Of a DNA stretch of 64,000 bases, positions 34,922 to 57,243 are shown piece by piece; positions within the stretch are counted from its first letter, which is position 1; each line of letters begins with the position of its first letter. The position numbers were made by a program, and so were the translations under genes. The notes under the pieces are model-generated. The model ran no database searches, was not told the origin of the DNA, and saw only the letters and a list, made by a program, of their open reading frames with translations. Origin of the DNA: Cumulibacter manganitolerans (GTDB lineage: Bacteria; Actinomycetota; Actinomycetes; Mycobacteriales; Antricoccaceae); contig NZ_WBKP01000001.1 in NCBI RefSeq assembly GCF_009602465.1, positions 22,060 through 86,059 on the forward strand. Direction: 5' to 3'.

Positions 34922-36454
34922 TTGTACGCAACCGAGCACGCCAGGCGGACCCCCGACAAGCCGGCGATCATCATGGCCGGCAGCGGCCGCGTGTACTCCT
35001 TCCGCGAGTACGAGGAGCACGCCAACGAGGCGGCTCACCTGTTCCGCGAGCTCGGGCTGCAGAACGGCGACACCGTCGCCCTGGTGCTGAGCAACACCCC
35101 GGAGTACATCTTCTGCAAGGCCGCCGCCGAGCGGGCCGGGCTGCGCTTCGTGTGCATCAACACCCACCTGCAGGCCGACGAGCTGCAGTACATCGTGGCG
35201 GACGCCGAGGCCTCCGTCGTGGTGTGCGACGCGACCACGCTCGAGGCCATCCGGTCGCTGCCCGACCGGTGCCCCGGCGTACGGCGCTGGCTGGTGTCCG
35301 GCGTACCCGCCGACGGGGTCTTCGAGAGCTATGAGGCGCTGATCGCGCCGCAGCCGGCGACGCCGATCGAGGACGAGCGGCTCGGTGGCGGCATGCTCTA
35401 CAGCTCCGGCACCACCGGCCGCCCGAAGGGCATCATCCGGCCGATCCCGGACACCGACCCGACGGACAACCTGCCGGTGTACCAGTTCACGAACGCGATC
35501 TTCCAGCTGACGCCGGAGATGACGTACCTGAGCACCGCCCCGCTGTACCACTCGGCGCCGCACAGCGCCCTGCTGGGCGCGGTGCGGCTGGGCGCGACGA
35601 GCGTCGTGATGGAGAAGTTCGACGCCGAGCAGTTCCTCGCGCTCGTGGAGAAGTACGGCGTGACCACCACCCAGGTCGTGCCCACGATGCTCAACCGGAT
35701 CATGCGGTTGCCGAAGGAGACCCGCGACAAGTACGACATCTCGACGCTGAAGACGGTCGTGCACGGCGCGGCGCCGATGCCCCCGCAGCTCAAGCGACAG
35801 GTCATCGACGAGTGGGGTCCGGTGCTGTACGAGTACTACGGCGCCACCGAGGGGCACGGCTTCTGCTGCGCGAGCTCCCAGGAGTGGCTCGAGCGCCCGG
35901 GCACCGTGGGCAAGTCGATCCTCGGCGAGATCGTGATCCGCGATGCAGAGGGCAACGAGCTGCCGCCGCTGCAGGAGGGCACCATCTGGTTCCGCGGGGC
36001 GACGAACTTCAGCTACAAGGGCGATGCAGAGCGCACGGCTCAGCAGCAGTCACCGGACGGCACGATGGCCACCGTCGACGACGTCGGGTACGTCGACGAG
36101 GACGGCTACCTGTTCCTGACCGACCGCAAGTCGCACATGATCATCTCCGGCGGTGTGAACATCTACCCGCAGGAGATCGAGGATCTGCTGATCACCCATC
36201 CCGACGTGCAGGACGCCGCGGTGATCGGCGTCCCGGACCCGGACTTCGGCGAGCAGGTGAAGGCGGTCGTCATCCGGACGCCGTCCGAGCGCAGCGACGA
36301 GGAGGTCGCCTCGGCGCTGATCGAGCACTGCCGGGCGCACCTCGCGCATTTCAAGGCGCCACGCACGATCGACTTCGTCGACGAGCTGCCGCGGACGCCG
36401 ACCGGCAAGCTGCAGAAGAAGCTGCTGCGCCAGCAGTACGCCGGTCGGTCCTGA
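34922..36454 (+). CDS. Acyl-CoA synthetase (AMP-binding enzyme)
   Basis: A 510-aa ANL-family ligase. It has the ATP loop YSSGTTGRPKG, the EYYGATEGHG segment, GYVDEDGYLFLTDRKSHMIISGG and the catalytic lysine near the end in TPTGKLQKK. It activates a carboxylic acid to its CoA thioester; the acid is not predictable. TTG 34922 is chosen because GGAGAGG lies upstream; an in-frame TTG at 34880 has no ribosome site. It fits the fatty or aromatic acid context of nearby OYE, enoyl-CoA hydratase and acyl-CoA dehydrogenase genes. Confidence 0.92.
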   Translation: MYATEHARRTPDKPAIIMAGSGRVYSFREYEEHANEAAHLFRELGLQNGDTVALVLSNTPEYIFCKAAAERAGLRFVCINTHLQADELQYIVADAEASVVVCDATTLEAIRSLPDRCPGVRRWLVSGVPADGVFESYEALIAPQPATPIEDERLGGGMLYSSGTTGRPKGIIRPIPDTDPTDNLPVYQFTNAIFQLTPEMTYLSTAPLYHSAPHSALLGAVRLGATSVVMEKFDAEQFLALVEKYGVTTTQVVPTMLNRIMRLPKETRDKYDISTLKTVVHGAAPMPPQLKRQVIDEWGPVLYEYYGATEGHGFCCASSQEWLERPGTVGKSILGEIVIRDAEGNELPPLQEGTIWFRGATNFSYKGDAERTAQQQSPDGTMATVDDVGYVDEDGYLFLTDRKSHMIISGGVNIYPQEIEDLLITHPDVQDAAVIGVPDPDFGEQVKAVVIRTPSERSDEEVASALIEHCRAHLAHFKAPRTIDFVDELPRTPTGKLQKKLLRQQYAGRS

Positions 36455-36479
36455 GCTCACGCGCTGCCCTGAGAAACGA

Positions 36480-36538
36480 ATCTGCGGGGGTGCGAGACAC
36501 GGTAATCGCTGATTATCGTGTCCCACACCCCCGCAGAT
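36480..36538. terminator. Bidirectional terminator between acyl-CoA synthetase and sodA
   Basis: Long imperfect inverted repeat: ATCTGCGGGGGTG pairs with CACCCCCGCAGAT, then GACACGGTAAT pairs with ATTATCGTGTC, around loop CGCTG. It lies between the convergent ends of the acyl-CoA synthetase and sodA and should stop both transcripts. Confidence 0.88.
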
Positions 36539-36557
36539 CGCAGGGTGGACGCCGGAG

Positions 36558-37181
36558 CTAGCCGACGATCAGGCCCTGGGTGGCCGTGCGCGCCTTGGCC
36601 AGGCGCTCGGTGACGTCGGCCCAGTTGACCACGTTCCACCACGCCTTGGCGTAGTCGGCCTTGACGTTCTTGTACTGCAGGTAGAAGGCGTGCTCCCACA
36701 TGTCCAGCATGAGGATCGGGGTGAGGCCGATCGGGACGTTGCCCTGCTGGTCCCACAGCTGCACGATGATCAGCTGCTGGCCGATCGAGTCCCACGCCAG
36801 GATCGCCCAGCCGGAGCCCTGGATCGTGGTCGCGGCGGCCTCAAACTGGCCCTGGAATGCCTCGAACGAGCCGAAGAACTCGTCGATCGCGGCCGCGACG
36901 TCACCGTCGGGACGGTCGCCGCCCTCGGGGCTCATGTTCTTCCAGAAGATCGAGTGGTTGGTGTGCCCACCCAGGTTGAACGCGAGGTTCTTCTCCAGCA
37001 TCGGGACGGTCGCGAAGTCGCCGGACTCGCGGGCCGCGCCCAGCTTCTCCAGCGCCGCGTTGGCGTCGTCGACGTACTTCTGGTGGTGCTTGTCGTGATG
37101 CAGCTGCATGATCTCGCCGCTGATGTGCGGCTCGAGCGCTGCGTAATCGTATGGAAGGTCGGGCAGCGAGTACTTCGCCAT
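36558..37181 (-). CDS. sodA: Superoxide dismutase, Mn/Fe type
   Basis: A 207-aa Mn/Fe superoxide dismutase converting superoxide to oxygen and hydrogen peroxide in the cytoplasm. Metal ligands are seen as His28 in QLHHDKHH, His in [10 protein letters not shown], and Asp and His in [13 protein letters not shown]. The GGH pattern and DQQGN favour the Mn-type or a cambialistic enzyme. ATG 37181 has GAGAAGGAGA upstream; the reading frame is open 11 codons further up without similarity. It ends at a strong bidirectional terminator and appears monocistronic. Confidence 0.96.
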
Positions 37182-37276
37182 GATTCGTTTCTCCTTCTCG
37201 TCGGACGTCACCATTCTGCCCCACCTGACCTTTTGTGCAATGCGGCTGCCGAGCCGCGGTGGGGCCTGCTCGCAGA

Positions 37277-38551
37277 CTACTTCTGGTAGGGCGCCTTGTA
37301 CTCGTCGGCCTCCTTGGAGGAGAACAGATCGCCGGTCTTGACCAGGCCGGTGGGAGCGTTGGGGTCGACCTTCAGGATGTACGCCTCGCGGCTGGTCGGC
37401 TCGCCGTGCTTGGAGAGGTCGAGCTTGCCGGTCAGGCCCTTGGTGTCGACGCTGGTGATCTGCTCGCGCGCCTTCAGGATGCCGGCGCGGGTCAGGTCGC
37501 CGTTGTCGCAGGCCTTCTTGAGGATCTGCTCGAACGCCATGCCGAAGACGTAGCCCGACGGGATCGCCTTCTCCGGCTCCTCGGGGTACTTCTTCTTGTA
37601 CTTTTCAGCGATATCGACCATCGCGGCATTGTCGGTGTCGCTGTAGGCGTCGACCGAGTTGAGGAAGAGGTAGTTCTGCTGCAGCGCCTGGGACGTCGCC
37701 TGGTCCTTCAGCAGCGAGACGGAGTACGTCGGGTTGTTGCCGATCATCGGCACGTTGAGCCCCTGCGCGACGTTCTGCAGCGCGACCGAGCCGAGCGCTC
37801 CCGGGGTGACCGCCAGCGCGATCGCCTTGACGCCGGCCTCCTTGAGCTTGGTGATCGTCGCCGTCATGTCGGTGTCGCTCGCCGAGACGGTGGCCTCGAC
37901 GACCTCCATCTTGTGCTCCTTGGCGTACGCCTTGGTGCCCAGCAGCGAGTTCTGGCCGTACTCCGAGTCGACGTAGATGTGGCCGATCTTGTCACCGTCG
38001 GCGATCTTGCCTTCCTTCTGCAGGTAGGCCAGGCCGTTGACCATCTCCACGTCGTACGTCTGGCCGATCATCAGGATCGACTCGGAGTCGAGGTTCACCG
38101 ACGCGGTGGCCGAGGGGATGCTGAGCATCTTCTCGTTGGTGAGCTTCTGCTTCAGCGCCGCGAGCACCGGCGAGCCGTTGACCTGGATCATCGCCGCGAC
38201 CTCGGACTTCATCTTCTCGTAGAGCGGCACGGCGTTGTCGGCCTTGTAGCCGTGGTCCTGGACGTTGAGCTTGATCTGGCGCCCGCAGATGCCGCCGGCG
38301 GCGTTGATGTCGTCGACCCACAGCTCGTTGCCGTGGGTGTTGGCCAGGCCGGTGGCCTTGAAGACGCCGGACGCGTCGGTGAGCGCGCCCAGCGTGATGG
38401 TGTCGTCGGTGACGCCGAGGTCGGTCTTGACGTCGCCCTTGCCTCCACCGCTGTCGCCGCCGCCCTGCGCCTTGGTGCTGCAGCCGGTCAGTGCAACGAC
38501 GGCCACGACGGTGGCTGCGGTGCCGGTGAGGAGGGTCTTGCGAACAGTCAT
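37277..38551 (-). CDS. ABC transporter substrate-binding lipoprotein, branched-chain amino-acid type
   Basis: A 424-aa periplasmic-binding-protein type 1 of the LivK group. A signal peptide ends at the lipobox LTGC (Cys22), followed by a Gly-Ser linker. The mature protein has [28 protein letters not shown] and later [14 protein letters not shown], typical of Leu/Ile/Val or amide/urea binding proteins. No permease or ATPase gene is adjacent, so it is an orphan in this window. ATG 38551. A TTACACCCGTGTAA palindrome lies 60 bp upstream and may be an operator. Confidence 0.92.
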
Positions 38552-38611
38552 GTGGAGCACTCCAGAATCCTTAGCGAAGCAAACTTTCCGGTTAGAGCAT
38601 GGCGCGGCCGT

Positions 38612-38625
38612 TACACCCGTGTAAA
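38612..38625. promoter_or_regulatory. Candidate operator upstream of the solute-binding protein
   Basis: TTACAC-CC-GTGTAA, a 6+6 inverted repeat with a 2-bp centre, about 60 bp upstream of the solute-binding protein start on the minus strand. Size and position fit a dimeric repressor site, but no regulator gene is adjacent. The 222-bp gap it lies in shows no gene. Confidence 0.45.
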
Positions 38626-38773
38626 CCGAAATGCCCAATTCTCGGGTGTGACCTGCGCAATGCACAGCGTCTGCACTGGATGGCGGGTGGTCCGAGCAGC
38701 GCGTGCCTGGCCCGATGCCCGGGGAGCGCTGAGACGTGCGGATGCCGGCCGACCCTGGAGCGGGCCGCCGGGG

Positions 38774-39484
38774 CTATGCCTGGCGGCGGGTGAACGCGAG
38801 TGCGAACTCGTTGCGGGTGTCGTCGATCGCCTCGCGCTCGTGCAGGTTGCGCCAGCGGTTGTTCAGCCGCTTCTGCTGCGCGATGACGTGCCGGCTGCTC
38901 TCGGCGGTGCTGGCTAGCAGCGCGGTGCAGGCTGCCTCCGGGTCCTCCTCGATGCGATTGAGGTAGCCGCGCTGCAGCATCAGCTCCGCGTCGTACTTGT
39001 CGGCGGTGAGGACCAGCTCGGTGGCGAGGGTCCAGCCCATCAGCCGGTGCAGGTTGACCGTCTCCAGCACCGAGGGGATGTCGATGCGGACCTCGGGCAT
39101 CTGGAAGAACGTGCCCGGGGCGGCGACGCGGAACTCGGCGGCCGCGGCGATCTCCAGGGCGCCACCGACGACGTACCGGCGCATCGCGACAGCCACCGGC
39201 ACCGGGCAGTCCTTCACGGCCTGGCAGACGTCGCCGAGCCGGGTGATGATGTCGTACGCGCGGTTGGGATCGTCGGTCTCGAACAGCGAGGTGTCCATCC
39301 CGGCCGAGAAGCCCGCGTCGTGGCTCGCGCGCAGCAGCACGCCGCGCACGCCCTCGTCGGCGCCGGCCTGCTCGAGCGCGTCGACGAGCTCGTCGAGCAT
39401 CTGCCACGTCAGGCTGTTCGCGCGCCGCGCGTTGTCCAGCGTGATGATTCGGACGGCGCCGTCGGTCTCGGTCTGGATGCTCAT
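38774..39484 (-). CDS. Enoyl-CoA hydratase/isomerase family protein
   Basis: A 236-aa crotonase-fold protein. It opens IITLDNARRANSLTWQML, has GFSAGMDTSLF where crotonases form the first half of the oxyanion hole, and VGGALEIAAAAEFRVA for the second. The catalytic glutamates of enoyl-CoA hydratase are not clearly in place, so the activity could be hydration, isomerisation or hydrolysis. ATG 39484 has AGGAGG upstream. It lies 52 bp after an alpha/beta hydrolase gene on the same strand, so they may be one operon. Confidence 0.85.
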   Translation of the reverse strand: MSIQTETDGAVRIITLDNARRANSLTWQMLDELVDALEQAGADEGVRGVLLRASHDAGFSAGMDTSLFETDDPNRAYDIITRLGDVCQAVKDCPVPVAVAMRRYVVGGALEIAAAAEFRVAAPGTFFQMPEVRIDIPSVLETVNLHRLMGWTLATELVLTADKYDAELMLQRGYLNRIEEDPEAACTALLASTAESSRHVIAQQKRLNNRWRNLHEREAIDDTRNEFALAFTRRQA

Positions 39485-51591: not shown

Positions 51592-51843
51592 ATGACGACC
51601 GAACGTGCCGACAGCGCCACCGCCCTGGCCATCGCGCTGGCCAATGTGACCAGCAGCCACCGCGCATTGACCGCCGCCCTCGCCGACGGCGACCTGGACG
51701 AGCACGGCGACCTGCTCGAGTGGAGCTCGGCGGTCACCGAGCTGCTGGGGTCCCTGACCGAGCACGTGCGCGAGCTGCTCGAGAAGCGGGACGGGACCGG
51801 CGTCCCGCAATCCGCCGCGGACACCGCTCCGGGCTACATCTGA
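51592..51843 (+). CDS. Small hypothetical protein
   Basis: An 83-aa protein, Ala-rich and largely helical (TALAIALANVTSSHRALTAAL, then SAVTELLGSLTEHVRELLEK). No membrane segment, signal or known motif. ATG 51592 has GAGGAG upstream, which supports a real gene. It lies convergent to the YciO/Sua5 gene, 33 bp away. Confidence 0.6.
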   Translation: MTTERADSATALAIALANVTSSHRALTAALADGDLDEHGDLLEWSSAVTELLGSLTEHVRELLEKRDGTGVPQSAADTAPGYI

Positions 51844-51876
51844 GCCCTCCGCGCGGGGACGAACCCGTGGACGGCG

Positions 51877-52494
51877 CTACTCGAACGGCGTCGGGTCGCC
51901 CGCACCCACGCGGACGACCTCCGGGACACCGCTGGTCATGTCGACGACCGTGGTCGGCGTGTAGCCCGACTCGCCCTCGATGACCGCGTCGACGACGTGG
52001 TCGAGTTCGTCCTTGATCTCCCAGCCGCTCAGCAGCGGCTCGTCGTGGTCGGGCAGCAGAAGGGTGCTGGAGACGATCGGCGATCCGACCGCCTCGATGA
52101 GCGCCTGGGCGACACGGTGATCCGGGATGCGGACGCCGACCGTCTTCTTCTTGGGGTTCTGCATGACCCGCGGCGTCTCGTGGCTGGCCTTCATGATGAA
52201 CGTGTACGGGCCCGGCGTCGCGTTCTTGAGCGCGCGGAACAGCGAGTTGTCGAACGTGACGTAGGCGTCCATCTGGGAGAAGTCGCGGCAGACGAGCGTG
52301 AAGTCGTGCTTGCTGTCGAGCTTGCGGATGTCACGGATCCGCTGCAACGCGTCCTTGTTGCCCAGCGAGCAGCCCAGCGCGTAGCAGGAGTCGGTGGGGT
52401 AGGCGACGAGCCCGCCGTCCCGGATGATCGCGGCCGCCTTCTCGATGAGCCGCGGTTGCGGATCCACCGGGTGAATGTCGATGTACGTCGCCAT
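51877..52494 (-). CDS. L-threonylcarbamoyladenylate synthase-like protein (YciO/YrdC/Sua5)
   Basis: A 205-aa protein of the YrdC fold. It has GGLVAYPTDSCYALGC, the loop near RKLDSKHDFTLVCRD and PGPYTFIMKA, then TVGVRIPDH. The pattern is closer to the YciO branch than to TsaC. YrdC/Sua5 enzymes make threonylcarbamoyl-AMP for tRNA t6A; YciO has weaker activity and an unclear role. ATG 52494 is preferred; GTG 52509 five codons upstream is possible. Divergent from the PLD-helicase gene. Confidence 0.88.
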   Translation of the reverse strand: MATYIDIHPVDPQPRLIEKAAAIIRDGGLVAYPTDSCYALGCSLGNKDALQRIRDIRKLDSKHDFTLVCRDFSQMDAYVTFDNSLFRALKNATPGPYTFIMKASHETPRVMQNPKKKTVGVRIPDHRVAQALIEAVGSPIVSSTLLLPDHDEPLLSGWEIKDELDHVVDAVIEGESGYTPTTVVDMTSGVPEVVRVGAGDPTPFE

Positions 52495-52606
52495 GCGCCG
52501 AGTATGCACCTCGCTCGCGCACGCTTACCCAGGTGTCGAGGGACCCGGCCGGTGACGGGTAAGCGCGTTGGTCGCGAACGTCGGAGCATTCTGAGAAGCT
52601 GCCGGC

Positions 52607-55600
52607 GTGACCGATGACCTTGTTGACGGCCTTTACGAGACCCTGCGCACCGAGCAGCTCGACCGGCGGCTCGCCGCGCTCTCTCTCGGGGCGCGATTCG
52701 GGCTGGTCGATGACGAGTACGTCGACGAGTTTCTGCTCCAGCACGTCGGCAGTGTCCTTCGCGATCACCTCGACCAGCACACGTCACCTAAAGGCAAGCT
52801 CGCTCTCGTCACGAGGGTCATGAGTGTTCTCGAGCCCAGTTTCCGGACGCTGCGTGACGACGCCGTCGAGCAACTCGAGCAGCTGACCAGTCGGGAGCTC
52901 GACGAAGGATCGCGGGCACGGCCCGAGGTCCCGCTTTCGGAGACCGCGCTATTCACGAACGCCGCCGGCGGCCCACGCCTGCATCTGGAACTCGGCCGGG
53001 AGCTCGAGTCGGCTGACCGCGTCGATTTGTTGTGCGCCTTCATCAAGAAATCGGGCCTGAAGCATCTCGAGGAGGCCTTGATCGACGCGCGCGACCGCGG
53101 CCTACCGTTTCGGGTGCTCACCACCACCTACATGGGAGCGACCGACGCGGCCGCCCTGCGCCGCCTCGTCGAGGACTTCGGGGCAGAGGTGCGAATCAGC
53201 TACGACACCGCGATCACTCGACTACACGCCAAGGCGTGGCACTTCTTTCGCGCCTCCGGCTTCTCCACCGCCTTCGTCGGGTCGTCCAATCTCTCGATGC
53301 CCGCACTCGATTCCGGCATGGAATGGAACGTCCGCCTGTCCCGCCGCGCAAACCCCGGCGTGCTGAGTCAGGTCGCAGCGGTGTTCGAGGGCTACTGGAA
53401 CAGCGGGCAGTTCCAAGATTTCCAACCCGACCGCGACAGCGAACGTCTGGAGCGTGCGCTCGCCGCCGCGGCCGGTCGTAATCGATCCGACGGCGCCGTC
53501 CAGCGCTTTATCAGTTCCCTCGATCTGACACCGCACCCGTATCAGGCGGAGATCCTGGACGCCCTCCGCACGGCGCGTGCCGAACTCGGCCAGCACCGGA
53601 ACATCGTGGTGGCCGCGACGGGCACCGGCAAGACGATGGTCGCGGCGTTCGACTATCGAGATCTCGCGGCCGGTCCCCAACGCCCCACGTTGCTGTACGT
53701 CGCCCACCGGGTCGAGATCCTGGAACAAGCACGAGCGGCCTATCGGGGCGTACTCAAGGACACCTCGTTCGGCGAGTTGTACGTCGGCGGTGAGCGGCCG
53801 ACGCGATGGCGCCAGGTGTTCGCGTCGGTGCAGTCACTGTCCAGGGGACTCGATCAGATCCCATCCGACCACTTCGACGTGGTCGTCGTCGACGAGGCGC
53901 ACCACTCTGGCGCCCGCTCGTGGGCCGCGGTCGTCGATCACTTTCGACCGCTCGAATACCTGGCGTTGACCGCCACCCCCGAACGGCGCGATGGGGTCGA
54001 CATCGTCGAACGAGACTTCGGCGGCCGAATCTCTGCCGAGATCAGGTTGTGGGACGCGTTGGATCGTGGACTGCTCACCCCCTTCGACTACTTCGCGCTC
54101 GACGACGCGACCGATCTACGCGCAATCCGGTGGGTGAACGGTCGCTACGACGACGAGCAACTCAGCGGCCTGTACGTCGGCAATGAGTCTCGCCTACGGA
54201 TCGTCCTCAACGAGCTGGACCGCAAGGTCGAGGACGTCGCGAGCATGCGCGCGCTGGGCTTCTGTGTGTCGGTCGAGCACGCCCACTACATGGCTAAGCG
54301 ATTCACCGATCTCGGCCTGCCGGCGAGAGCCATCACCGGTGAGACCGCGGCCGGCGACCGGGCGGCTTGGGTTGCAGAGTTACGCGCGGGCCGGTTGCGC
54401 TGCATCTTCACCGTCGACGTTTTCAACGAGGGCATCGACATCCCATCGGTCGACACGGTGCTACTGCTGCGTCCGACGCAGAGTTCCACCGTCTTCTTGC
54501 AGCAACTCGGTCGCGGGCTGCGCAAGTACGAGGGAAAGAGCGTGACCACGGTGCTCGACTTCGTCGGGCTCAATCGTGAGGAATTCGATTTCGAGCCGAA
54601 GATCGCCGCGCTTGTGCGTTCGGGGAGCCGAAGCGTCTTCGTCCAGGTCGAGGACAACTCGTACGAGGTCCCGGTCGGCTCGACGATCACTCTGCAGCGC
54701 CAGGTCCGCAGCAGGATTCTCGATCAGTTGAAGGCTCGGATACGCGGCAGCCGTCGTCGTCTCATCGAGGCCGTGCGGCAGACCGGCACGGAAGAGCTCG
54801 AGGTGCTCTTGCGGCAGACCGGAATGCTGCTTTCCGACATATATCGGGGCGCCCGCCCAGCCGACACCTGGATCGGGGCGCTCAACGCCGCCCGATTGAG
54901 CCACGATCAGCTCACGTCGCCGCTGCTGAACCGCGCCCGCGCGTTGACGCACGTAAATGATCGTGAGCGCCTCGAGCTGATTGCCTCCGTTTGTCGGCCA
55001 GACGCGCCGGCGTACCGCGACCTGACGCCGCGGAAGCGAGCGCTGGCGCGGATGCTCATCCACGTATTGCATCGACCGCTCAAGGCGGTCGATGACCACG
55101 ATTACGAACGCGCGCTCGAGGCGGTCCGCGTCGATACGGAGTTCGGTTTTGAGATCGCGCAGTTGACCGGCGCCCTGCGTGTGCGGCTCCGCGAGCAACC
55201 CGTTCCGGTCGACGGGCGGCTTGCCGCGGTGCCCGCGTTGGTGAATGGGTTGTATCGCCGCGACGAGGCGTTGTCCGCGTTCGGGTACACCGAGGGCGGT
55301 CGCGCCACGTCGAGTCATCAAGTCGGCGTTGCGTGGTGTGAAGCGACCCAGACGGACCTGCTGTTCGTGAACCTCCGCAAGTCGACCAAGCACTTCGCGC
55401 CGTCGATCCAGTACCGCGATTACGCCATCAGCCGAGACCTGTTCCACTGGGAGAGCCAGAACTCGACCCCCGCGGATGGCAAGGTCGGGCGTCGGTATCG
55501 GCGGCACGATGAGCTCGGAACCGAGGTCGTGCTCTTCGTTCGTGAAGCCCGGGATGACGCATTCGGCGGCGGAGCGCCGTTTCGCTGCTTGGGCGCCCTC

Positions 55601-55702
55601 GACTACGTCAGCCACGTCGGTGAGAAGCCGATGGCGATCACCTGGAGGCTCCGATCACCGATGTCCGAATCGGTGTGGAAGATCGCTTCCGCGGTCGGAT
55701 AG
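52607..55702 (+). CDS. PLD-helicase-DUF3427 fusion protein
   Basis: A 1031-aa protein. Residues about 110-265 form a phospholipase D-like domain with one HxK motif (RLHAKAW, His207, Lys209) and GSSNLS. Residues about 305-660 are a superfamily 2 helicase: Walker A AATGTGKT (336-343), DEAHH (429-433), TATPER (455-460) and QQLGRGLRK (632-640). The rest matches the DUF3427 region. The single HxK means a dimer would be needed for PLD nuclease chemistry. Codon use is visibly less GC-biased than in its neighbours, suggesting transfer. No restriction or methylase gene is adjacent. It is a strong candidate for anti-phage or DNA-processing function. Confidence 0.9.
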   Translation: MTDDLVDGLYETLRTEQLDRRLAALSLGARFGLVDDEYVDEFLLQHVGSVLRDHLDQHTSPKGKLALVTRVMSVLEPSFRTLRDDAVEQLEQLTSRELDEGSRARPEVPLSETALFTNAAGGPRLHLELGRELESADRVDLLCAFIKKSGLKHLEEALIDARDRGLPFRVLTTTYMGATDAAALRRLVEDFGAEVRISYDTAITRLHAKAWHFFRASGFSTAFVGSSNLSMPALDSGMEWNVRLSRRANPGVLSQVAAVFEGYWNSGQFQDFQPDRDSERLERALAAAAGRNRSDGAVQRFISSLDLTPHPYQAEILDALRTARAELGQHRNIVVAATGTGKTMVAAFDYRDLAAGPQRPTLLYVAHRVEILEQARAAYRGVLKDTSFGELYVGGERPTRWRQVFASVQSLSRGLDQIPSDHFDVVVVDEAHHSGARSWAAVVDHFRPLEYLALTATPERRDGVDIVERDFGGRISAEIRLWDALDRGLLTPFDYFALDDATDLRAIRWVNGRYDDEQLSGLYVGNESRLRIVLNELDRKVEDVASMRALGFCVSVEHAHYMAKRFTDLGLPARAITGETAAGDRAAWVAELRAGRLRCIFTVDVFNEGIDIPSVDTVLLLRPTQSSTVFLQQLGRGLRKYEGKSVTTVLDFVGLNREEFDFEPKIAALVRSGSRSVFVQVEDNSYEVPVGSTITLQRQVRSRILDQLKARIRGSRRRLIEAVRQTGTEELEVLLRQTGMLLSDIYRGARPADTWIGALNAARLSHDQLTSPLLNRARALTHVNDRERLELIASVCRPDAPAYRDLTPRKRALARMLIHVLHRPLKAVDDHDYERALEAVRVDTEFGFEIAQLTGALRVRLREQPVPVDGRLAAVPALVNGLYRRDEALSAFGYTEGGRATSSHQVGVAWCEATQTDLLFVNLRKSTKHFAPSIQYRDYAISRDLFHWESQNSTPADGKVGRRYRRHDELGTEVVLFVREARDDAFGGGAPFRCLGALDYVSHVGEKPMAITWRLRSPMSESVWKIASAVG

Positions 55703-55767
55703 CTCGGCGGTCGATGTAGCAGCGCCGCATGGCACGTGCGAAGCGTTCGGCCTTGACGCCCAGCTGA

Positions 55768-56172
55768 CTAGGACCGTGCCTTACGGGTCTCCTTGTCGTT
55801 CGCCTTCTGGATGGCGTCGACCAGCTCGTCCTTGTCCATCTTCGAGCGGCCGCTGATGCCGAGCCGCTTGGCGACGTCGTACAGGTGGCTCTTGGAAGCG
55901 TTCGCGTTCACGCCGCCGGCGGTGTCACCGCCTCGACGTGCCTTGGCCCCGGACTTCTGGGCCTGCTTGTCCGAGGGTCCCTTCTGGTCCTTGGCCTCCC
56001 AGTGATCGCCGACCTTCTCGAAGCTGTGCTTGAGAGCCGCGAAGGCCGTTCGATGTGCGCGCTCGCCCTCGCCGTACTCCTCGACCGCGGAGTCGTGCGT
56101 TTTCGACCACGTCTCCTGCGCCTTCTTCGGCGAGCGCTGCAGGGTAGAGGGCAGTTCATCCTTGGCGGGCAT
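55768..56172 (-). CDS. ChaB-like protein with Rho N-terminal-type domain
   Basis: A 134-aa protein. Residues 1-60 match the ChaB family (MPAKDELPSTLQRSPKKAQETW, AVEEYGEGERAHRTAFAALKH). The C-terminal part has a SAP/Rho-N-like motif (LYDVAKRLGISGRSKMDKDELVDAI) that can bind nucleic acid, joined by a Lys-Gly linker. Such proteins are common stress-type genes in actinobacteria. ATG 56172 has GGAGGA upstream. Convergent with the helicase gene. Confidence 0.85.
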   Translation of the reverse strand: MPAKDELPSTLQRSPKKAQETWSKTHDSAVEEYGEGERAHRTAFAALKHSFEKVGDHWEAKDQKGPSDKQAQKSGAKARRGGDTAGGVNANASKSHLYDVAKRLGISGRSKMDKDELVDAIQKANDKETRKARS

Positions 56173-56367
56173 TGTGGTTCCTCCTTCGTCGCGTGCAACG
56201 TCGTAGTACCCAGGCGGTACGTGTCCATGCTCGCCCGGAGAGCGGGACCGCACCACCCCACTCTGTTCCTACCCCGAGTATGGCTTCATGGTCGTGACCA
56301 GGTTGGTCAGGCCGGTTCGTCGCGATCGGTTCCCCGCGGGCGGCCCAGGCAGAAGGGATAGCAGTGC

Positions 56368-57243
56368 ATGCACGTGTTCCTGGCGGTCGTTGGCGTGGCA
56401 TTGATCGCGGTCGGCCTGACGGACATGTTCCACACCCTGCTGCACCCCAGCGGGCGCGGGCGGGTCAGTCATTGGGTCTTCGCGCAGGCGTGGAGGGCCT
56501 CGAAGGCGACGGGCCACCGGCTTGGTTCGGTATTGGGGCCGGCTGCGATGGTCGTCGCCATCTCCGTCTGGGTGGCGATGCACGCGGTCGGCTGGGCGCT
56601 GATCTACCTTCCGCACATCACCGACGGGTTCACCTACTCGTCGGGCATCGACCCGACTGCGTATCCGCGGATGGTGCAGGCGCTGTACTACTCGGTCGTC
56701 GTGCTCTCGACCCTCGGTTTCGGTGACGTCGTGCCCGTCGACCCGTGGATTCGCATCGTCACACCTCTCGAGGCGCTCACCGGTCTGGCGTTGCTCACCG
56801 CGGCGCTGACCTGGTTCACCCAGATGTACCCGCCGTTGTCGCGGCGCCGGGCGCTGGCTCTGCATCTGAAGAGCCTGGCGGACAGCGACTATGCCGAGGA
56901 CCTCGCCGCGATCCCCTCGGAGACGGCAAGCCGGGTGCTTGACGAGCTCTCGGCCGAGGTGGGGCAAGTGCGCATCGATTTCACGCAGTACAGCGAGAGC
57001 TACTACTTCCAGGAACGGGATGCGGATATCTCGCTGCCCTGCCAGCTGCCGTACGCGGTACGCATGCGGGACGCGTCGCTCGCGCGACCGGAGATCGGTG
57101 TGTCCAGGAGCGGGCGCCAGCTCGCGATCGCCCTCGAGCAGCTGGGGGCCGTGCTCGAACACAACTACCTGCACACGGACGAGACCCTCGGCGGCGTACT
57201 CGCCGCGTACGCCGCCGACCACGCCCAGAAGACTGCTACCTGA
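56368..57243 (+). CDS. Potassium channel family protein (two-helix pore)
   Basis: A 291-aa protein. N-terminal helices (about 1-22 and 58-82) and a pore loop with filter STLGFGDVVP (Thr115-Asp120) precede the inner helix (about 130-150). The filter is GFGD rather than GYGD, a variant known in some channels. The C-terminal 140 residues are cytosolic, without a recognisable RCK domain. It should pass K+ across the membrane. ATG 56368. The penicillin acylase gene follows 64 bp later. Confidence 0.85.
   Translation: MHVFLAVVGVALIAVGLTDMFHTLLHPSGRGRVSHWVFAQAWRASKATGHRLGSVLGPAAMVVAISVWVAMHAVGWALIYLPHITDGFTYSSGIDPTAYPRMVQALYYSVVVLSTLGFGDVVPVDPWIRIVTPLEALTGLALLTAALTWFTQMYPPLSRRRALALHLKSLADSDYAEDLAAIPSETASRVLDELSAEVGQVRIDFTQYSESYYFQERDADISLPCQLPYAVRMRDASLARPEIGVSRSGRQLAIALEQLGAVLEHNYLHTDETLGGVLAAYAADHAQKTAT

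What the first reader, a model, noticed from the sequence alone, without database searches (positions are those of the whole stretch)
52607..55702. Solitary PLD-helicase-DUF3427 protein, possible defence gene
A nuclease-like domain joined to an SF2 helicase in one 1031-aa chain, with codon use less GC-biased than its neighbours, sits alone between housekeeping-type genes. This pattern fits horizontally moved single-gene anti-phage systems, though no methylase or second subunit is present.
Basis: partly seen in the sequence, partly recalled or inferred. Interest (0 to 1): 0.6.

Follow-up and report, generated by a model that had tools for sequence, protein, structure and literature searches.

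The report
Enzyme that likely cuts methylated DNA
This lone gene almost certainly encodes a one-protein restriction enzyme of the known SauUSI type, which recognises chemically marked (methylated) foreign DNA and cuts it; it is a new member of a known kind, and related genomes carrying it carry fewer cytosine-methylating enzymes than expected.

Summary
In detail: one 1031-codon GTG-started ORF (52607-55702, +) encodes a PLD nuclease, an SF2 helicase and a DUF3427 domain. [quoted passage not shown] PADLOC's mREase_IV model covers residues 102-1030 at 850 bits. SauUSI (PDB 7clg) is the best sequence and fold match and is colinear over four domains. The modelled C-terminal domain matches SRA-fold readers of 5-methyl/hydroxymethylcytosine, and the two SauUSI base-reading residues that map best (Asp858, Trp868) are invariant here.

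I added a genomic test. Across 399 genomes of the order, carriers have fewer cytosine-C5 methyltransferases than expected (odds ratio 0.42, P 3e-4). Within one genus of 160 species the ratio is 0.33 (P 0.001), or 0.28 for intact copies. Adenine methyltransferases show no effect (1.0 and 1.2). This is what a 5-methylcytosine-directed nuclease predicts.

The gene is accessory: absent from both congeners, where other genes fill the site, and present in 25% of the order. Phylogeny does not settle horizontal transfer (AU P 0.051). Two loose ends: this copy is the most diverged in the tree, and its own genome holds four C5-methyltransferase matches, at least one full-length. New member of a known kind.

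The parts
52607..55702 (+). SauUSI-type Type IV restriction enzyme, 1031 aa, whole ORF
52607..52966 (+). N-terminal helical extension (residues 1-120), absent from SauUSI and from the Pseudoalteromonas homologues; low-confidence model; no Pfam family and no convincing structural match
53063..53398 (+). PLD nuclease domain (PLDc_2, residues 153-264)
53225..53233 (+). HxK catalytic motif H207-A-K209, invariant in 27 homologues
53279..53323 (+). GSSN (N228) to E239, further conserved PLD residues; invariant in 27 homologues
53525..53986 (+). SF2 RecA1 / ResIII domain (307-460) with Walker A 337-343 and DEAH 429-432
54236..54523 (+). SF2 RecA2 / Helicase_C domain (544-639) with motif VI QQLGRGLR 632-639
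54677..55192 (+). Alpha-helical coupler (about residues 691-862), equivalent to SauUSI coupler 618-805
55199..55699 (+). C-terminal target recognition domain (865-1031, core of DUF3427), predicted SRA fold
55418..55450 (+). D938 to W948, equivalents of SauUSI Asp858 (base-specific contact) and Trp868 (5mC pocket)
51877..52509 (-). TsaC (L-threonylcarbamoyladenylate synthase): conserved upstream anchor, not part of the system
55768..56256 (-). ChaB/Rho_N-like gene, also absent from both congeners; shares the accessory segment, no functional link shown

Best explanation
It is a stand-alone Type IV restriction enzyme of the SauUSI kind. The C-terminal SRA-fold domain recognises DNA carrying 5-methylcytosine (or 5-hydroxymethylcytosine) by base flipping. 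Binding switches on the SF2 ATPase, which translocates along the DNA. Two PLD nuclease domains of a dimer then cut when a translocating enzyme meets one bound at another site. This destroys methylated incoming plasmid or phage DNA and spares unmodified host DNA. Inferred from SauUSI (PMC7913695): translocation, dimeric cutting and shredding. Not known: the recognition sequence and activity in this host.
For: PADLOC mREase_IV: 850 bits, E 5e-256, residues 102-1030. SauUSI 7clg is the best PDB match by single sequence (E 5e-80) and by family profile (E 6e-125, colinear 121-997 against 31-919), and the best fold match (E 7e-43). SauUSI Asp858 and Trp868 align with D938 and W948, invariant in the 27-row alignment. 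PLD residues H207, K209, N228, E239 and Walker A lysine are invariant. Carriers are depleted of C5-methyltransferases: order 40 observed against 55.9 expected, OR 0.42, P 2.9e-4; one genus, full-length-type matches, 28 against 38.2, OR 0.33, P 0.001, intact enzymes OR 0.28, P 2e-4. Adenine methyltransferase controls: OR 1.01 (order) and 1.22 (genus), both not significant. 4 of 6 broken enzyme copies in that genus lie in genomes with a strong C5-methyltransferase, against 24 of 88 intact (P 0.06).
Against: The window's own genome has four C5-methyltransferase matches, one full-length (536-aa ORF), so an unselective 5mC nuclease would harm the host; its site would have to differ from theirs, or one side is silent. 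Two SauUSI pocket residues are not conserved (Tyr831 to V908, Met829 to V906). The copy is the most diverged in the tree (end branch 1.73, median 0.16) and differs at 23 near-invariant positions, including S931A and T934I near the predicted base-contact loop. The acidic residue of SauUSI's HxKx4E is not kept (F214). The co-occurrence tests do not fully remove phylogenetic dependence. No activity data exist.
Confidence: 0.87

Rival explanations
1. Same architecture, but the reader has moved to another mark or context (for example 5hmC, another cytosine modification, or a narrow 5mC site), so it tolerates the host's own C5-methyltransferases.
For: Own genome has C5-methyltransferase matches; longest branch in the tree; changes near the predicted base-contact loop; V908 and V906 in place of SauUSI Tyr831 and Met829.
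Against: D938 and W948 are kept, and the fold matches cytosine-mark readers. V908 is common to the family, not special to this copy. The host methyltransferases may be inactive or hit other sites; host methylation was not measured.
Confidence: 0.12
2. A classical restriction enzyme that cuts unmodified DNA with a methylase encoded elsewhere (CglI/NgoAVII-like or Type I/III-like).
For: PLD plus SF2 helicase also occurs in CglI/NgoAVII (PMC7913695). In three of four inspected Streptomyces plasmids a solo coupler-DUF3427 protein lies within 4 kb of a cytosine methyltransferase (the fourth has none).
Against: No methylase beside this gene. No C5 DNA-methylase family among the top-25 Pfam families of 264 flanking ORFs of relatives (rarer families are not listed). 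Carriers lack C5-methyltransferases more often, not less. CglI/NgoAVII split nuclease and ATPase into two subunits with a B3 reader; here one chain with an SRA fold.
Confidence: 0.04
3. A DNA-repair or housekeeping helicase (RadD/XPB-like) fused to a PLD domain.
For: Helicase core matches RadD (105 bits, E 4e-25).
Against: RadD score is far below its cut-off of 720 bits; only the helicase core matches. Found in 25% of the order and absent from congeners, unlike housekeeping genes. SRA reader and PLD nuclease present.
Confidence: 0.03
4. A decaying, non-functional copy.
For: Long branch and 23 deviations at near-invariant sites; broken copies exist elsewhere in the family; coexists with C5-methyltransferases.
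Against: Full-length ORF with all catalytic motifs intact and mostly conservative deviations.
Confidence: 0.08

Closest known systems
SauUSI (Staphylococcus aureus; PDB 7clg; PMC7913695), ATP-dependent Type IV enzyme for S-5mC-N-G-S
   Same: One chain: PLD nuclease, SF2 ATPase, helical coupler, SRA reader in the same order; HxK, Walker A, Asp858 and Trp868 equivalents kept
   Different: About 30% identity over the core; about 100-residue N-terminal extension; acidic residue of HxKx4E and pocket Tyr831/Met829 not kept; recognition site unknown
[quoted passage not shown]
   Same: 850 bits over residues 102-1030
   Different: The profile does not cover the N-terminal extension
ScoA3I (Sco2863, Streptomyces coelicolor), called SauUSI-like (unverified) in PMC6212794 and listed for m5C in PMC3874153
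   Same: Actinobacterial SauUSI-like enzyme listed as acting on 5mC
   Different: Sequence not compared here, so whether it is in this subclade is not known
TagI / SRA-HNH and AbaSI / MspJI enzymes
   Same: SRA-type reader of modified cytosine
   Different: Different nuclease; no helicase
CglI / NgoAVII restriction systems
   Same: PLD nuclease with SF2 ATPase
   Different: Two subunits, B3 reader

Membership tests
SauUSI-type Type IV restriction enzyme | Single chain: PLD nuclease, SF2 ATPase, coupler, C-terminal TRD in this order | tested here: met
SauUSI-type Type IV restriction enzyme | PLD catalytic residues (HxK, Asn of GSxN, downstream Glu) | tested here: met
   H207, K209, N228, E239 invariant in 27 sequences; the Glu of HxKx4E is replaced (F214)
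SauUSI-type Type IV restriction enzyme | TRD with SRA fold | tested here: met
   predicted model, pLDDT 87; top fold hits are SRA domains; profile match to the SauUSI TRD
SauUSI-type Type IV restriction enzyme | Base-reading residues of the SRA pocket | tested here: inconclusive
   Asp858, Trp868 and Phe841 equivalents kept, Ile842 to Val; Tyr831 and Met829 both replaced by Val
SauUSI-type Type IV restriction enzyme | No cognate methylase encoded with the gene | tested here: met
   none beside the gene; none among the listed families of relatives' flanks
SauUSI-type Type IV restriction enzyme | Directed at 5mC/5hmC DNA | tested here: inconclusive
   indirect: C5-methyltransferase depletion in carriers, adenine controls flat; biochemistry not testable here
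SauUSI-type Type IV restriction enzyme | ATP-dependent translocation, dimer, cleavage | not testable with these tools
   Known for SauUSI (PMC7913695)
CglI/NgoAVII | Nuclease with B3 reader and ATPase on separate subunits | tested here: not met
   one chain, SRA fold
RadD repair helicase | NCBIfam equivalog cut-off 720 bits | tested here: not met
   104.7 bits
Type I restriction subunit R | EcoAI-type HsdR equivalog cut-off 550 bits, with HsdM/HsdS | tested here: not met
   92.9 bits; no partners beside the gene

The most novel reading that the evidence does not exclude
This most diverged actinobacterial SauUSI-type enzyme has changed what its SRA domain reads (another cytosine mark or a narrow context), which lets it live beside C5-methyltransferases that most carriers of this enzyme avoid, with the N-terminal extension adding a new control step.
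Probability: 0.12. Interest if true: 0.5.

Novelty: new member of a known kind. Interest (0 to 1): 0.3.

Why it matters
It places this gene in a mechanistically understood class and gives a genomic sign that the actinobacterial branch, of which only ScoA3I is mentioned in the papers read here, is directed at 5-methylcytosine: carriers avoid C5-methyltransferases at order and genus level while adenine methyltransferases show no effect. In practice, this host and about a quarter of its order may destroy Dcm-methylated plasmids, so DNA for transformation should come from dam-/dcm- strains. The exceptions, carriers that also hold C5-methyltransferases such as this genome, are the informative cases for finding recognition sites.

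Tried and rejected
N-terminal extension against PDB: only E 0.14. Defence-island or conserved partner in relatives' 5-kb flanks: scattered defence genes, none recurrent. Mobile-element traces at the site: no tRNA near it and no notable repeats at 51800-56400. Promoter and terminator scan uninformative. Vertical against horizontal by tree: inconclusive, AU P 0.051 with long branches. HNH gene in the congener's slot as an SRA-HNH Type IV enzyme: suspected, but no PDB hit; only HNH models match. The original SauUSI paper (PMC3141236) is not held.

Full report
What is there. The ORF 52607-55702 (+) is as described: GTG start, 1031 aa. Pfam gives PLDc_2, ResIII, Helicase_C and DUF3427 above their cut-offs. 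Catalytic motifs are intact: HAK 207-209, GSSN 225-228, E239, ATGTGKT 337-343, DEAH 429-432 and QQLGRGLR 632-639. GC3 is 0.809, against 0.88-0.97 for most neighbours; only the adjacent ChaB-like gene is similar, at 0.828. It is a single-copy gene in a 3.9-Mb, 136-contig genome.

What it is. [quoted passage not shown] SauUSI is the best solved relative by single sequence (E 5e-80) and by a 27-sequence profile, colinear over 121-997 against 31-919 (E 6e-125). It is also the best fold match of the AlphaFold2 model (mean pLDDT 75; E 7e-43). The published SauUSI structure has a PLD nuclease, an SF2 ATPase, a helical coupler (618-805) and an SRA-fold reader (806-953) (PMC7913695). That DUF3427 binds modified DNA has been predicted before (PMC7159879; PMC3874153).

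A profile of 54 homologous C-terminal domains matches only the SauUSI TRD significantly (803-918, E 6e-6). The domain modelled alone has pLDDT 87 and pTM 0.86. Its best fold matches are SauUSI, AbaSI, TagI, MspJI, SUVH6, KRYPTONITE and UHRF1/Np95 SRA domains, all modified-cytosine readers. By the alignment, SauUSI Asp858 and Trp868 fall on D938 and W948, both invariant in the 27-row alignment. Phe841 falls on F920 and Ile842 on V921. Tyr831 and Met829 fall on V908 and V906, so part of the pocket differs.

The nuclease. H207, K209, N228 and E239 are invariant in the alignment. The glutamate of SauUSI's HxKx4E motif is not kept: F214 stands there, with H in many relatives.

A test of what it targets. 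A 5mC-directed nuclease should avoid hosts with C5-methyltransferases. In 399 genomes of the order, 100 carry the enzyme and 223 a C5-methyltransferase; 40 have both against 55.9 expected, odds ratio 0.42, P 2.9e-4. Adenine methyltransferases (PF02384) as control: 58 against 57.9, odds ratio 1.01. Within the genus of G018 (160 genomes), for matches of E 1e-40 or better, 28 have both against 38.2 expected, odds ratio 0.33, P 0.001. Counting only intact enzymes the ratio is 0.28, P 2e-4. The adenine control gives 1.22, P 0.6. Of six broken enzyme copies in that genus, four lie in genomes with a strong C5-methyltransferase, against 24 of 88 intact (P 0.06). Limits: E-value thresholds were chosen by me, several were tried (all point the same way; any-match in the genus gives P 0.03, and E 1e-30 gives P 0.07 for all copies), and relatedness within the genus is not modelled.

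The exception at home. The window's genome has four C5-methyltransferase matches. One is a 536-aa ORF with canonical PCQ and ENV motifs, and its best PADLOC model is DruM2. Three look phage-type, and at least one of these seems truncated. So its site must avoid the host's methylation, or one partner is inactive. This copy also has by far the longest branch of the tree (1.73, median 0.16). It departs at 23 of about 210 near-invariant positions, none of them catalytic.

Distribution and movement. Both congeners lack the gene. The flanking markers are conserved (TsaC at 82-84% DNA identity upstream; penicillin acylase, LMF-like and further genes downstream), but the segment between is replaced by other genes (YhhN, FMO-like, DUF222-HNH, HNH_2, TrkH/TrkA). 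The ChaB neighbour is also missing there. Two of five genomes of the family have the enzyme, and 25% of the order in 28 of 85 genera. Relatives occur in Acidimicrobiia, Planctomycetota, Myxococcota and Gemmatimonadota, on plasmids and in viral or virus-labelled contigs. A clade with the only family member that has the gene costs 20 log units, AU P 0.051: not decided.

Mechanism. Steps inferred from SauUSI (PMC7913695): reader binds a modified site, ATPase is activated, enzyme translocates, convergence on a bound enzyme triggers double-strand cuts by the PLD dimer. None of these was tested here.

Verdict. A new member of a known kind. The methylase it missed is not needed.

Noticed in passing
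In three of four a DNA cytosine methyltransferase lies within 4 kb. They could mask methylated sites from Type IV enzymes or sense them.
   Followed up: partly
G000:C12:84946-86154 (L056), G000:C3:62603-62956 (L057), G000:C21:48445-48810 (L058), G000:C2:105104-105457 (L059): Four C5-methyltransferase matches in the host genome, one full-length, in tension with an m5C-directed nuclease.
   Followed up: partly
window 52607-55702: This copy has a branch about ten times the median length and 23 deviations at near-invariant sites, with motifs intact.
   Followed up: partly
L012:11853-12746: In congener G002 the same slot holds an HNH_2 nuclease that matches PADLOC restriction-type HNH models; both congeners also carry DUF222 proteins there. 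The slot may be a turnover site for nucleases.
   Followed up: partly
L016 and L019 (Mycolicibacter acidiphilus contig NZ_JAHCLR010000044.1): Two copies of the enzyme about 10 kb apart on one 21-kb contig.
   Followed up: no
window 36001-39000: A GC dip to 0.65 with strong AT skew, unrelated to this gene.
   Followed up: no
window 52607-52966: The N-terminal extension (residues 1-120) is shared by most actinobacterial homologues but missing in Pseudoalteromonas and SauUSI; function unknown.
   Followed up: partly
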